Positions 27,245 through 32,091 of a DNA stretch of 32,487 bases are shown in pieces. Both the position numbers and the translations under genes were made by a program. The notes under the pieces are model-generated. The model saw only the letters and a list, made by a program, of their open reading frames with translations. It was not told the origin of the DNA and did not search any database. Origin of the DNA: Halanaerobium kushneri (lineage in GTDB: Bacteria > Bacillota > Halanaerobiia > Halanaerobiales > Halanaerobiaceae); NCBI RefSeq assembly GCF_900156285.1, contig NZ_FTNC01000029.1, positions 1 to 32,487 of the forward strand, in the 5' to 3' direction. Within the stretch, counting starts at the first letter, position 1. Every line of letters starts with the position of its first letter.

Positions 27245-27535
27245 GATAAAATTGCTATAGCTGATTTGGAGTCACAGCAGCAGATTTTAAATTTAAGTCT
27301 GGAGCTGTTGGAGGAAGAAGAGAAGATTGATGTTTTGATCAATAATGCGGGAATTTATCAAAATAAATTAGAATATAGTGAAGATCAGATAGAAAAGACT
27401 ATAGCTGTCAATTATCATTCTCAGTTTATTTTAACACTTCATTTGCTTCCATTATTAGATAAAATTACCTTTAACTGCCTACATCCAGGAGTTATTAATA
27501 CCAAATTGCTGCAAAAAGGTTGGGGAGCGGAATAA
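27245..27535 (+). pseudogene. Short-chain dehydrogenase/reductase remnant
   Basis: Coding text runs DKIAIADLESQQQILNLSLE, then IDVLINNAGIYQNKLEYSED and IAVNYHSQFILTLHLLPLLDK, then jumps to ITFNCLHPGVINTKLL. The NNAG motif is present, but the N-terminal nucleotide-binding loop and the catalytic YxxxK are gone: the first by truncation, the second by an in-frame deletion near residue 68. No ribosome site. It is a different SDR from the one at 24779 and lost different parts. Confidence 0.75.
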
Positions 27536-28114: not shown

Positions 28115-28143
28115 TTTACAATTTTAATTTAAAATGATAAAAT
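28115..28143 (+). promoter_or_regulatory. Sigma-A promoter for the ATP-grasp/esterase operon
   Basis: TTTACA (28115-28120), a 17-base spacer and TAAAAT (28138-28143), about 75 bases before the start codon at 28220. Confidence 0.6.
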
Positions 28144-28219
28144 TAGTTAACTTATTAATAACAGTTATGATTATAATTAGTGATAATTCGAGAAGTAGAG
28201 TAGAGAAAGGAAGGATCAT

Positions 28220-29380
28220 ATGAATTTTATCTTTATATCGCCATATTTTCCTAATAATTTTTATAATTTCTGTGTGGAGCTTAAAAACGCCGGAGTCAAT
28301 ATACTTGGAATTGGAGATATGCCCTATTTAGAATTGAGAAGAGAGCTTAAAGATTCTCTGACAGAATATTATAAAGTTGATAATATGGAGGACTATTCCC
28401 AGCTGCTTAGAGCTTGTGGATATTTCACCCATAAGTATGGAAAAATTGATAGAATTGAGTCCAATAATGAACATTGGTTGGGAAAAGATGCCCGTTTGCG
28501 AACTGATTTTAATGTGCCAGGTTTAAAAATTGATGAAATTGAAGCAATGAAGTACAAATCAAAGATGAAAGACGTCTTTCAGCAGGCTGGTTTAAACACA
28601 GCCCGCGGCAGGGTTGTTAACAGTCTCAACGAAGCCGAAGACTTTATTGCTGAAGTTGATTATCCGGTGGTTGTTAAACCTGACAGCGGTGTTGGCGCAG
28701 CAGATACCTATAAAATTCACAATCACGATCAACTGTTAGATTTTTTTAATAATAAATTAAATCTTGATTATATAATGGAAGAATATATCGAGGGCAAAAT
28801 ACACACTTTTGATGGGCTGACAGATCAAGAAGGTAATATTGTTTTTTCCTCCTCAATGGTCTATAAGGGTGGAATTATGGAGACTGTTAATGAGGGGCTT
28901 GATATGTATTATTATATTCCGCGAGAGCTACCGGAAGATATAGTGGAAGCTGGTAAAAAGACGGCTCGGGCCTTTGAACTCAAAGAAAGATTTTTTCACT
29001 TTGAGTATTTTAAACTAGCGGACGGAAGAATTGTTGCCCTGGAAGTTAATATGAGACCACCTGGAGGGCTGACTCTGGACATGTTTAATTATGCCAATGA
29101 TATAAATATCTACAAAGCTTATGCAGAGTTGATAGCTCATGGTGAATTTAGAGCAGATATCAGCAGAAAATATAATTGTTTTTATATCGGCCGTAAGAAT
29201 TTTATCAATTATAAGCATTCTTTAGAAGATATTTTAAATAATTATGGTCAATATATAGTTTTACACGAAGCAATTTCGCCCATTTTAGCTCCTGCTATTG
29301 GAGATTATGGCATAATTTTAAGAACTGAGGAAATGGAGCAGGGAAAAGAAGCTGTTAAATATGCGATAGATAAAAATTAA
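28220..29380 (+). CDS. ATP-grasp domain ligase
   Basis: A 386-residue ATP-grasp enzyme, the superfamily that activates a carboxylate as acyl-phosphate and couples it to an amine or other nucleophile. Residues 1-100 form the N-terminal alpha/beta lobe (FIFISPYFPNNFYNF). ATP contacts include VVVKPDSGVGAADTY (K153) and MEEYIEGK (about 186-193), with E275VNMRPPGG as the metal-binding acidic/arginine strand. It resembles carboxylate-amine ligases more than biotin carboxylases. GAAAGGAAGG precedes the start. It opens an operon with two esterases (28- and 56-base gaps), so it may build a ligated product that the esterases modify or release. Substrate unknown. Confidence 0.85.
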   Translation: MNFIFISPYFPNNFYNFCVELKNAGVNILGIGDMPYLELRRELKDSLTEYYKVDNMEDYSQLLRACGYFTHKYGKIDRIESNNEHWLGKDARLRTDFNVPGLKIDEIEAMKYKSKMKDVFQQAGLNTARGRVVNSLNEAEDFIAEVDYPVVVKPDSGVGAADTYKIHNHDQLLDFFNNKLNLDYIMEEYIEGKIHTFDGLTDQEGNIVFSSSMVYKGGIMETVNEGLDMYYYIPRELPEDIVEAGKKTARAFELKERFFHFEYFKLADGRIVALEVNMRPPGGLTLDMFNYANDINIYKAYAELIAHGEFRADISRKYNCFYIGRKNFINYKHSLEDILNNYGQYIVLHEAISPILAPAIGDYGIILRTEEMEQGKEAVKYAIDKN

Positions 29381-29408
29381 TTTTTTTGAAAGGAAAGCAG
29401 GTATAATT

Positions 29409-30158
29409 ATGCAGATAGAGTACAGAAGTTTTTACAGTTCAAATTTAAATCGGGAGATGCCTTTTAAAATCTACGGCTATGCCGGAAAACCAATGCTTGT
29501 TTTCCCTTCTTCTGGTGGTAGTTTTCATGAATACGAGGACTTTGGTATGATTGATGCTATCTGGCCTTTTATTGAAAATGGTGAGCTAACAGTTTATGCA
29601 GCAAGCAGTGTTGATGCTGATTCCTGGCTTAATTTCGGCCTCCATTCCCATGATAAGGCTTTAGTTCACAACAGCTATGATCGCTATATTGTTGATGAAC
29701 TGCTGCCTCTGATTAAATATCATTCCAATTGGCAGGGAGGATTAATTACTACTGGCTGCAGTATGGGCGCCTACCATGCTGTCAATTTTTATTTTAAACA
29801 TCCTGATGCCTTTGATACCGCTGTTGCTTTAAGCGGTATTTATGATGCCAGATTTTTTACCGGGGGCTATATGGATACAGAAGTCTATTTGAATTCCCCG
29901 GTTGATTATTTAAGGGAGCTGGAAGATGATTGGTATCTCAATCATTATCGCAAAAATAAGTTGATTGTCTGTGCCGGTCAGGGCAGATGGGAGAAAGATA
30001 CTTTAAGAGATACCAGGCTTTTAGATACTATTCTGGCTGAAAAAGGGATTCCTGCCTGGTTTGATTACTGGGGTTATGATGTAGACCATGACTGGACAGG
30101 CTGGAGAGAGCAGATGCCCTATTTTCTGGGAAAGCTTAAAGAAGAGGGAATTATCTAG
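29409..30158 (+). CDS. Esterase-like alpha/beta hydrolase (EstA/Fes-like)
   Basis: A 249-residue alpha/beta hydrolase without a signal peptide. The nucleophile elbow is GCSMGAYHA with S118, and H227 in VDHDWTGW is the likely catalytic histidine. The N-terminal stretch FPSSGGSFHEYED could shape the oxyanion site. Similar proteins are annotated as esterases of the putative tributyrin/Fes type. It is the second gene of the ATP-grasp operon and is followed by a second, different esterase. The substrate is unknown. Confidence 0.88.
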   Translation: MQIEYRSFYSSNLNREMPFKIYGYAGKPMLVFPSSGGSFHEYEDFGMIDAIWPFIENGELTVYAASSVDADSWLNFGLHSHDKALVHNSYDRYIVDELLPLIKYHSNWQGGLITTGCSMGAYHAVNFYFKHPDAFDTAVALSGIYDARFFTGGYMDTEVYLNSPVDYLRELEDDWYLNHYRKNKLIVCAGQGRWEKDTLRDTRLLDTILAEKGIPAWFDYWGYDVDHDWTGWREQMPYFLGKLKEEGII

Positions 30159-30214
30159 TTTAGTTGATTTTAAAAAAAGTAAGATCAATAAAAAAGGTAG
30201 CTGAGGGGTTCTAG

Positions 30215-31060
30215 ATGATAAAAGAAAAAATAGATATTAAAATTATAAAGGACTTTAAATCTGAGGTTTTAAATAATTCCAGAAAAATAAGAATATATTT
30301 ACCGCCTTCTTATTCAGCTCAAAAGAATAAATTTTATTCAGTTTTATATGTTCATGACGGTCAGAATGTATTTTACGGCCGGGAATCTTTTTCTGGAGAT
30401 TCCTGGAATCTGCATCAGACTGCAGAAAGGTTAATTAGAGCCGAAAAAATTGAAGAAATTATAATTGTGGCTGCTGATAATATGGGTAAAGAACGGCTGA
30501 GCGAATATGCTCATCAGGATGGTTATTATAGAGGGAAGAAGGTTAAAGCCAGAGGTTTTGCCTATGAAAAATTTATTATTCGAGAACTAATGCCCTTTAT
30601 TGAAGAAAATTACAGAGTTAGAAAGGGTCCAGAAAATACAGCCTTAATGGGTTCATCGATGGGAGGGTTGGTTACTTTCAACATTGGATTGCGGAGGAGC
30701 GATCTCTTTGGCAAACTTGCAGTGATGTCTCCCTCCTTCTGGTGGGGTAAAAGTTCCCCGCTGGAAAAAATTAATTCTTATAATTATCATAATTTAAAGA
30801 GCAGAATCTGGCTGGATACGGGTGAGGCCGAAGGTAAATTTATGTCTTTTACGGAGGATGTCATTTCAAGGCTCAAAGAGCTTAAAAGAAAATTTAAACT
30901 TGATTTAATCTATTATCAGGTTCCCGGAGCCGTTCACAGCGAAACTGCCTGGGCAGCTAGAGTTCACTGTCCCCTCCTATATTTTTATGGAGATTTTGCA
31001 GATCTTAAAAAGCTGAAATCGAAAGATTTTGATTACAGCTACTGCAAAAAATTAAAATAA
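30215..31060 (+). CDS. Esterase-family alpha/beta hydrolase (IroE/Fes/esterase D-like)
   Basis: A 281-residue alpha/beta hydrolase of the esterase-D family: RKIRIYLPPSY at 23-33, VLYVHDGQNVF at 43-53, nucleophile GSSMGG with S148 (146-151), and H241 in GAVHSETAW as the catalytic histidine. This family includes enterobactin/siderophore and feruloyl esterases. There is no signal peptide, so an intracellular ester is cut. The ATG has a weak ribosome site (GAGGGG); translation may rely on readthrough from the previous gene. It closes the operon. Confidence 0.88.
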   Translation: MIKEKIDIKIIKDFKSEVLNNSRKIRIYLPPSYSAQKNKFYSVLYVHDGQNVFYGRESFSGDSWNLHQTAERLIRAEKIEEIIIVAADNMGKERLSEYAHQDGYYRGKKVKARGFAYEKFIIRELMPFIEENYRVRKGPENTALMGSSMGGLVTFNIGLRRSDLFGKLAVMSPSFWWGKSSPLEKINSYNYHNLKSRIWLDTGEAEGKFMSFTEDVISRLKELKRKFKLDLIYYQVPGAVHSETAWAARVHCPLLYFYGDFADLKKLKSKDFDYSYCKKLK

Positions 31061-31070
31061 CAAACAGATA

Positions 31071-31094
31071 AAGCCGGTATTAGCCGGCTTTTTT
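31071..31094 (+). terminator. Operon terminator
   Basis: Perfect 7-bp stem AAGCCGG/CCGGCTT (31071-31077 with 31084-31090, loop TATTAG) followed by TTTT. Confidence 0.85.
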
Positions 31095-31137
31095 CTAACT
31101 CTGAAATTTAATTGAAGGCTATACTGCTGCTGAAAGA

Positions 31138-32091
31138 TTAAGCCAGTTTTTTTATAATTTTTTCTAAATAGCGTGATTTGAGCTGCTTACTGGCCATTGC
31201 CTGTTTAATGGGAGGCAGTTTTAAAATAGCTGAGACTACAGCTGCCATTGCCCGGTGGCTGCCGAAAGCCTGGTTATCGAAAATCAAATTCTGCAGTTTA
31301 CCTCTTTCAATTGCCATCATAACTGTTCTGTGGACTGAATTAACGGGAGTTATAATTTCTTCTTTGCGCCGCTGCAGACTTAAGGAGCTGTTGGGGCAGG
31401 AGCGAACACAGACTCCACAGCCAAGACAGATATCATGGTCAATCACTACCTTTTCATCATTTCTGGAGATTGCATCGATTGGACAGGCTTCAATACACTT
31501 ACCACAGTCAATACAGCTTTGGTAATTGATCTGAGGTAGATAATGAGTTGTCTGTACCGGATGCAGATTGCCAAACTTTTTTGCTGCCAGAAGTGCCTCA
31601 CAGCAGCAGCCACAGCAGTTGCAGATAAAGGTAGGACTCTCACGCACATTTTCTCCACACTGAACAAGTCCGTGCTCATAAGCCTGATGTAAAAGCTCCA
31701 GACACTCTGAAGTTTCAACTCGACGGGCATGATCATGGCGGATTAAAGAATCAGCAGTGTTATTAAAGGTCATACAGATATCAAGTGGAGCATCACAGGC
31801 CTGATCAAGGTGGTGCATTTTATGCCTGCAGTAACAGGTGCTGATTCCTATATCTTCAGCACTTTCTATGATATGACTTGCTTTTTCAAAATCCAAAATA
31901 TGGACCATATTATCTTTAGAGAGAACTTCTTCATTAACATAGACCCGGCCCAGTTTGGTCTCGCTGGCTAAAAATAGATCTTTAATAAAATCTTCTTCCA
32001 CATTCAAATACTGATGATATAATTCTGCCAGCAGTTTTTGATTGATATCCTGACGGGTTCTCATCATTGAAAATTCAAAAAAACCTGCCAT
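31138..32091 (-). CDS. 4Fe-4S dicluster ferredoxin-like protein, N-terminally truncated
   Basis: The 317 residues contain a two-cluster ferredoxin module, C193IDCGKCIEAC203P and C222LGCGVCVRSC232P. Before it lie cysteine pairs C86YC88, C99, C106 and a dense cluster FICNCCGCCC at 156-164, so it binds several iron-sulfur clusters and probably transfers electrons. Family members begin with about 110 further residues, a winged-helix-like domain ending in LPPPMAGFFEFSMMR. Here that frame continues upstream for about 22 codons (KKYILPPP) to a stop at 32160-32158. The ATG at 32091 has no ribosome site, so the N-terminus is deleted and the gene may be inactive. Confidence 0.7.
   Translation of the reverse strand: MAGFFEFSMMRTRQDINQKLLAELYHQYLNVEEDFIKDLFLASETKLGRVYVNEEVLSKDNMVHILDFEKASHIIESAEDIGISTCYCRHKMHHLDQACDAPLDICMTFNNTADSLIRHDHARRVETSECLELLHQAYEHGLVQCGENVRESPTFICNCCGCCCEALLAAKKFGNLHPVQTTHYLPQINYQSCIDCGKCIEACPIDAISRNDEKVVIDHDICLGCGVCVRSCPNSSLSLQRRKEEIITPVNSVHRTVMMAIERGKLQNLIFDNQAFGSHRAMAAVVSAILKLPPIKQAMASKQLKSRYLEKIIKKLA

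What the first reader, a model, noticed from the sequence alone, without database searches (positions are those of the whole stretch)
28115..31094. ATP-grasp ligase plus two unlike esterases in one operon
A promoter, three tightly spaced genes and a terminator form a clean cassette: an enzyme that makes an amide/ester-like bond followed by two intracellular alpha/beta hydrolases with intact triads. This could be a small pathway for making and remodelling an unknown ligated metabolite.
Basis: inference. Interest (0 to 1): 0.6.

Follow-up and report, generated by a model that had tools for sequence, protein, structure and literature searches.

The report
Widespread ligase–esterase gene pair
A small operon in a salt-loving bacterium holds an ATP-driven, probably amide-bond-making enzyme next to two esterase-like enzymes, and the first two genes travel together in many gut and soil bacteria, which points to a common small-molecule cycle whose product nobody appears to have named.

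Summary
The cassette is real. In Halanaerobium, AG (28220-29380, ATP-grasp), E1 (29409-30158) and E2 (30215-31060), both PF00756 alpha/beta hydrolases, lie 28 and 56 bp apart between a conserved extended -10 promoter and a strong intrinsic terminator.

The linkage is not local. AG and E1 are adjacent on the same strand in 70 of 80 genome loci found by AG alone, across Bacillota, Bacteroidota, Spirochaetota, Synergistota and Nitrospirota, and also on rhizobial plasmids. In 196 Erysipelotrichales genomes, 144 have both, 3 only AG, 3 only E1, 46 neither. Among 61 relatives of the window, the same 11 hold AG, E1 and an E2 orthologue. E2 is a lineage-restricted third member (16 of 80 loci), and the window copy lacks the C-terminal domain of its orthologues.

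AG is closest in sequence and fold to the L-amino-acid ligase RizA. E1 folds like CE1 esterases and S-formylglutathione hydrolase, with conserved Ser118, Glu195 and His227.

Best reading: a ligase/hydrolase module that makes, and then cleaves or edits, an amide (dipeptide-like) metabolite. Module: strong. Amide ligation: likely. Hydrolysis of AG's own product: inferred. Substrate: unknown. The library searched held no description of the pair. New variant of a known kind.

The parts
28115..28143 (+). promoter: TTTACA, 17 bp spacer, extended -10 TG-N-TAAAAT
   Evidence: TG and most of the -10 hexamer invariant in 8 orthologous upstream regions
28207..28215 (+). ribosome-binding site before AG
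   Evidence: read from sequence; conserved AAAGGAA.GAT in Halanaerobium orthologues
28220..29380 (+). AG: ATP-grasp carboxylate-amine ligase, RizA/L-amino-acid-ligase-like, 386 aa
   Evidence: K153, E262, E275, N277, R279 invariant in 49 homologues
29409..30158 (+). E1: PF00756 alpha/beta hydrolase, 249 aa, putative triad S118/E195/H227
   Evidence: partner of AG in 70/80 loci
30215..31060 (+). E2: PF00756 alpha/beta hydrolase, 281 aa, putative triad S148/E206/H241; lacks the C-terminal domain(s) of its orthologues
   Evidence: orthologue present in the same 11 Halanaerobiota genomes as AG and E1
31070..31096 (+). intrinsic terminator (9-bp stem, U run), may also serve the convergent Fe-S gene

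Best explanation
A conserved metabolic module. AG uses ATP to activate a small carboxylic acid, most likely an amino acid, as an acyl phosphate and joins it to an amine, giving a dipeptide-like or amino-acyl amide metabolite. E1, a cytoplasmic serine hydrolase, acts on the same compound or its direct precursor or derivative, most likely hydrolysing it so that the pool can be turned over (a make-and-break pair, in the way cyanophycin synthetase is paired with cyanophycinase). E2 is a lineage-specific second esterase that adds a further cleavage or editing step in Halanaerobiales. Shown: three genes in one transcription unit by layout; AG-E1 linkage and co-occurrence across phyla; RizA-like ligase fold with its catalytic residues; CE1-like hydrolase fold with conserved Ser/Glu/His. 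Inferred: amide product, amino-acid substrate, hydrolysis direction, role of E2.
For: An AG-only search gave 80 loci, 70 with E1 adjacent, all 70 on the same strand, typical gaps below 60 bp, in both gene orders and as AG-E1-AG. The two AG copies of AG-E1-AG operons are old paralogues (46-53% identical to each other, about 73% within each type) that fall in separate clades, yet share one E1. Of the nine genomes behind the ten loci without adjacent E1, six carry E1 elsewhere, and two others have different PF00756/PF12146 hydrolases as neighbours of AG (L069, L089). Co-occurrence 144/3/3/46 in 196 Erysipelotrichales and 11/0/0/50 in Halanaerobiota-centred genomes. AG and E1 pairwise identities correlate, r = 0.84 over 73 loci. 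AG model pLDDT 93; RizA 4wd3 Z 32.2 (rmsd 3.8, 360 aligned), BL00235 3vot Z 31.6 (rmsd 3.5, 361 aligned), ahead of PurK at Z 28.6. Profile hit to RizA 4e-19, sharing the E84, R94, H260, E262, E275 and R279 positions. E1 model pLDDT 94, feruloyl/S-formylglutathione esterases Z about 23.
Against: No neighbour beyond E1 recurs across phyla, so the context does not name a substrate. The RizA-like fold is shared by PurK, PurT and biotin carboxylases, so amino-acid ligation is not proven. E1's fold relatives cleave esters and thioesters, not amides. A few genomes have only one of the two genes. r = 0.84 also reflects shared host phylogeny, since no control gene was used.
Confidence: 0.4

Rival explanations
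1. E1 works upstream of AG: it frees a carboxylic acid (a hydroxycinnamate or other acyl group) from an ester taken up by the cell, and AG then conjugates that acid to an amino acid.
For: E1 and E2 are structurally or by sequence closest to feruloyl and related CE1 esterases. In two MAGs AG lies in an aromatic-pathway operon (AroE-SKI, EPSP synthase, DAHP synthase, prephenate dehydratase, dehydroquinase), and in Peptoclostridium AG-E1 is flanked by two DAHP synthases.
Against: No signal peptide; no linked uptake or aromatic-degradation genes in most loci; the aromatic contexts are few and the AG of that operon has no E1 beside it.
Confidence: 0.2
2. E1 is an acyltransferase rather than a hydrolase: it moves the acyl or aminoacyl part of AG's product onto a hydroxyl acceptor.
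For: Ser-Glu-His triad and fold shared with the mycolyltransferases Ag85 and Cmt (Z 20-22.5); PF00756 contains true acyltransferases (established knowledge).
Against: S-formylglutathione hydrolases and feruloyl esterases score as high or higher; no acceptor-related gene is linked.
Confidence: 0.15
3. AG is not an amino-acid ligase but a PurT/PurK/biotin-carboxylase-like enzyme acting on formate or bicarbonate, with E1 removing a formyl or similar group.
For: PurK and PurT are the next best folds (Z 25-28.6); E1 resembles S-formylglutathione hydrolase; a formate/nitrite transporter gene lies directly upstream of AG in a Mogibacterium-type group.
Against: RizA and BL00235 score above all PurK/PurT structures, only RizA passes 1e-15 by profile, and the transporter is seen in one related group only.
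Confidence: 0.12
4. The three genes are unrelated housekeeping enzymes brought together by chance or by operon drift.
For: Flanking genes differ between lineages.
Against: Same-strand adjacency in 70/80 loci across phyla and one-to-one co-occurrence in two independent genome sets.
Confidence: 0.03

Closest known systems
RizA / BL00235 L-amino-acid ligases (PDB 4wd3, 3vot)
   Same: Same three-domain ATP-grasp fold, best structural and profile matches, shared E84, R94, H260, E262, E275 and R279 positions. Lals join two free amino acids, and ATP-grasp enzymes work through an acyl phosphate (PMC6920838).
   Different: About 20% identity, no biosynthetic cluster around AG, a dedicated esterase partner, and wide distribution among anaerobes.
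Cyanophycin synthetase plus cyanophycinase (make-and-break pair; from established knowledge)
   Same: ATP-grasp ligase paired with a serine hydrolase; AG has a weak, sub-cut-off match to the cyanophycin synthetase model (36 bits against 850).
   Different: AG (386 aa) has no Mur-ligase half; E1 is an alpha/beta hydrolase, not an S51 peptidase. Similarity of logic only.
CE1 esterases, S-formylglutathione hydrolase (FrmB/EstD), Ag85 (PF00756)
   Same: Fold (Z 20-23.7) and Ser/acid/His arrangement.
   Different: E1 is only about 10-19% identical to the solved structures listed, has no NCBIfam match and carries its own conserved HDW..W motif.
BacD/YwfE alanine-anticapsin ligase
   Same: L-amino-acid ligase fold, Z 26.7.
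   Different: 25.8 bits against an equivalog cut-off of 850.

Membership tests
ATP-grasp superfamily | ATP-grasp domain above curated cut-off | tested here: met
   PF13535 42.6 bits against 27; PF02655 and PF02786 also above cut-off
ATP-grasp superfamily | conserved ATP/Mg and catalytic residues | tested here: met
   K113, K153, H260, E262, E275, N277, R279 invariant in 49 homologues
L-amino-acid ligase (Lal) group | closest sequence and fold relatives are Lals | tested here: met
   RizA is the only PDB profile hit below 1e-15; RizA and BL00235 top the fold list, Z 32.2 and 31.6 against 28.6 for PurK
L-amino-acid ligase (Lal) group | ATP-dependent dipeptide formation from free amino acids | not testable with these tools
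   needs an enzyme assay
BacD (alanine-anticapsin ligase) | NCBIfam equivalog cut-off | tested here: not met
   25.8 bits against 850
Carbamoyl-phosphate synthase-like PRK12767 / CPSase | NCBIfam equivalog cut-off | tested here: not met
   44.3 bits against 286 and 33.7 against 1027
PF00756 esterases (E1, E2) | Pfam gathering score and serine-hydrolase elbow | tested here: met
   E1 41.4 and E2 115 bits against 22; GxSxG at S118 and S148
Enterochelin esterase (E2) | NCBIfam equivalog cut-off | tested here: not met
   49.3 bits against 222
Feruloyl esterase / CE1 (E1, E2) | activity on feruloyl esters | not testable with these tools
   fold similarity only; xylanase-feruloyl esterase equivalog not reached by E2 (50.2 against 1200)
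Graspetide RiPP system | precursor peptide gene beside the ATP-grasp ligase | not tested
   AG and E1 are usually within 60 bp of each other, but short ORFs further out were not surveyed

The most novel reading that the evidence does not exclude
A common but undescribed intracellular amide (dipeptide-like) metabolite is made by AG and broken down by E1 in many anaerobic gut and sediment bacteria, for example about three quarters of the sampled Erysipelotrichales genomes.
Probability: 0.35. Interest if true: 0.75.

Novelty: new variant of a known kind. Interest (0 to 1): 0.5.

Why it matters
If correct, two genes predict a shared metabolite in a large share of gut Erysipelotrichales and other anaerobes, and the question can be settled with two purified enzymes. 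It would also give a dedicated partner and a physiological role to a branch of L-amino-acid-ligase-like enzymes whose relatives are known mainly from antibiotics and biocatalysis.

Tried and rejected
T-box motif upstream of the operons: none in 84 upstream regions. Riboswitches in 16 loci: none directly upstream of AG or E1; the only T-box (L058) precedes an Asx/Lys-type tRNA synthetase gene. Phage origin: viral contigs gave only distant matches and the phage collection three short unannotated fecal records; not pursued. Heat-shock context (hrcA-grpE-dnaK-dnaJ downstream of AG-E1 in a Mogibacterium-type group): a one-lineage neighbour, rejected as a functional clue. Operon mates within 120 bp vary by lineage (transporters, AzlC and MazG proteins, M29 peptidase, PALP enzyme), with no constant third partner. 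Literature: no paper in the searched open library joins ATP-grasp with this esterase; the 2009 amidoligase survey by Iyer and colleagues is not held, so a prior mention there cannot be excluded.

Full report
What is there. The window is a Halanaerobium contig (G000:C16; its nearest rows in the AG tree are Halanaerobium). Three same-strand genes at 28220-29380, 29409-30158 and 30215-31060 are separated by 28 and 56 bp. Upstream, TTTACA-17-TAAAAT with TG before the -10 (28115-28143) is conserved: the TG and four bases of the -10 hexamer are invariant across eight orthologous upstream regions, including a Clostridiaceae relative. Promoter-like sites as a class are not in clear excess in the region, so conservation is the real support. 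A 9-bp hairpin with a U run (31070-31096) folds at -15.5 kcal/mol, z -5.0.

The proteins. AG matches ATP-grasp_4 (PF13535, 42.6 bits, cut-off 27), and E1 and E2 both match PF00756 (41.4 and 115 bits, cut-off 22). No curated NCBIfam equivalog cut-off is reached by any of them. AG residues K113, K153, H260, E262, E275, N277 and R279 are invariant in 49 homologues. E1 has S118 and H227 in 46 of 46 sequences and E195 in 45 of 46; E2 has S148, E206 and H241 in 15 of 15. Assigning these as triads is inference from position and conservation. None of the three has a hydrophobic leader or membrane segment.

Folds. The AG model (pLDDT 93) is closest to the L-amino-acid ligases RizA (Z 32.2, rmsd 3.8, 360 aligned) and BL00235 (Z 31.6, rmsd 3.5, 361 aligned), then PurK (28.6) and other ATP-grasp enzymes. 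By profile, RizA is the only PDB match below 1e-15, sharing the E84, R94, H260, E262, E275 and R279 positions, though RizA has Ala where AG has N277. ATP-grasp ligases activate a carboxylic acid as acyl phosphate, and Lals join two free amino acids (PMC6920838). The E1 model (pLDDT 94) falls among CE1 esterases, S-formylglutathione hydrolases and Ag85 at Z 20-24, with only about 10-19% identity, so fold does not give its substrate.

Linkage survey. A genome search with AG alone gave 80 loci in Bacillota, Bacteroidota, Spirochaetota, Synergistota and Nitrospirota; E1 is adjacent and on the same strand in 70. Plasmid hits add Peptoclostridium, Pararhizobium and Sinorhizobium AG-E1 pairs. Both gene orders occur, and many Erysipelotrichales loci read AG-E1-AG; the two AG copies are old paralogues (46-53% identical) in different clades. 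Ten loci lack an adjacent E1. They come from nine genomes (L096 and L110 share one assembly); six of the nine carry E1 elsewhere, and L069 and L089, which do not, have other alpha/beta hydrolases beside AG. Co-occurrence is 144 both, 3 AG only, 3 E1 only and 46 neither in 196 Erysipelotrichales genomes, and 11 both, 50 neither in 61 Halanaerobiota-centred genomes. Genomes are related, so these counts are not independent events, but the spread across phyla at 35-50% identity makes chance linkage untenable.

E2. In the same 61 genomes an E2 orthologue (58-80% identity to the window copy) occurs in exactly the 11 genomes that hold AG and E1; one other genome has a weaker 35-40% match. It follows E1 closely in ten; in G008 about 1.5 kb separates E1 from E2 and the Fe-S gene lies between them in reverse orientation. 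More distant E2-like esterases (about 26-31%) sit beside AG or E1 in eight further loci outside that group. E2 is therefore a recurrent but optional member. The window copy ends after about 268 shared residues, whereas ten orthologues continue for 65-170 residues; the window's tail is unrelated and the terminator follows at once.

Mechanism. The simplest model is a ligase and a hydrolase sharing one metabolite: AG forms an amide at the expense of ATP and E1 opens or trims it, with E2 adding a step in Halanaerobiales. The module claim is well supported, amide ligation is likely, and the direction and substrate are inferred. Genomic context does not name the substrate: neighbours differ by lineage. 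Scattered hints point to amino-acid or small-acid metabolism: an AzlC-type transporter in two Erysipelotrichaceae, an amino-acid permease and DAHP synthases in Peptoclostridium, an aromatic-pathway operon in two MAGs, and a formate/nitrite transporter in a Mogibacterium-type group. Each is one or a few lineages and none is decisive. No T-box or riboswitch was found directly upstream.

Known or new. AG belongs to the ATP-grasp superfamily and resembles Lals; E1 and E2 belong to PF00756. No searched paper describes their pairing, but one likely relevant survey is not held, so prior mention is possible. I rate this a new variant of a known kind: known enzyme folds in an apparently undescribed, widespread two-gene module.

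Noticed in passing
window 30960-31060: E2 of this strain has lost the C-terminal domain(s) present in all ten Halanaerobiota orthologues; the longest orthologues (L034, L037, L038) carry about 170 extra residues.
   Followed up: partly
L044, L046-L051, L054, L055, L057, L062, L063, L072, L077, L081, L091, L098, L105: Operons AG-E1-AG with two old AG paralogues around one esterase, suggesting two related ligation reactions sharing one hydrolase.
   Followed up: partly
L046 4567-7883: Tandem array of five related HAD-like genes (PF18143 in the homologue L044) between a PALP-type PLP enzyme and AG-E1-AG.
   Followed up: no
G008:C5:900015-900386 (L013): Fragment of an AG gene (residues 1-123, 80% identical) apart from the full copy, probably a remnant of a second copy.
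   Followed up: no
window 27266-27535: Short ORF resembling part of a short-chain dehydrogenase, probably a decayed gene.
   Followed up: no
L109 2895-9212; L110: AG as a late gene of an aromatic amino acid operon (AroE-shikimate kinase fusion, EPSP synthase, DAHP synthase, prephenate dehydratase, dehydroquinase); the L109 genome has no detectable E1.
   Followed up: partly
window 31138-32091: Convergent gene for a ferredoxin-type Fe-S protein that reaches no specific family cut-off; in relative G008 its homologue lies in reverse orientation between E1 and E2.
   Followed up: no
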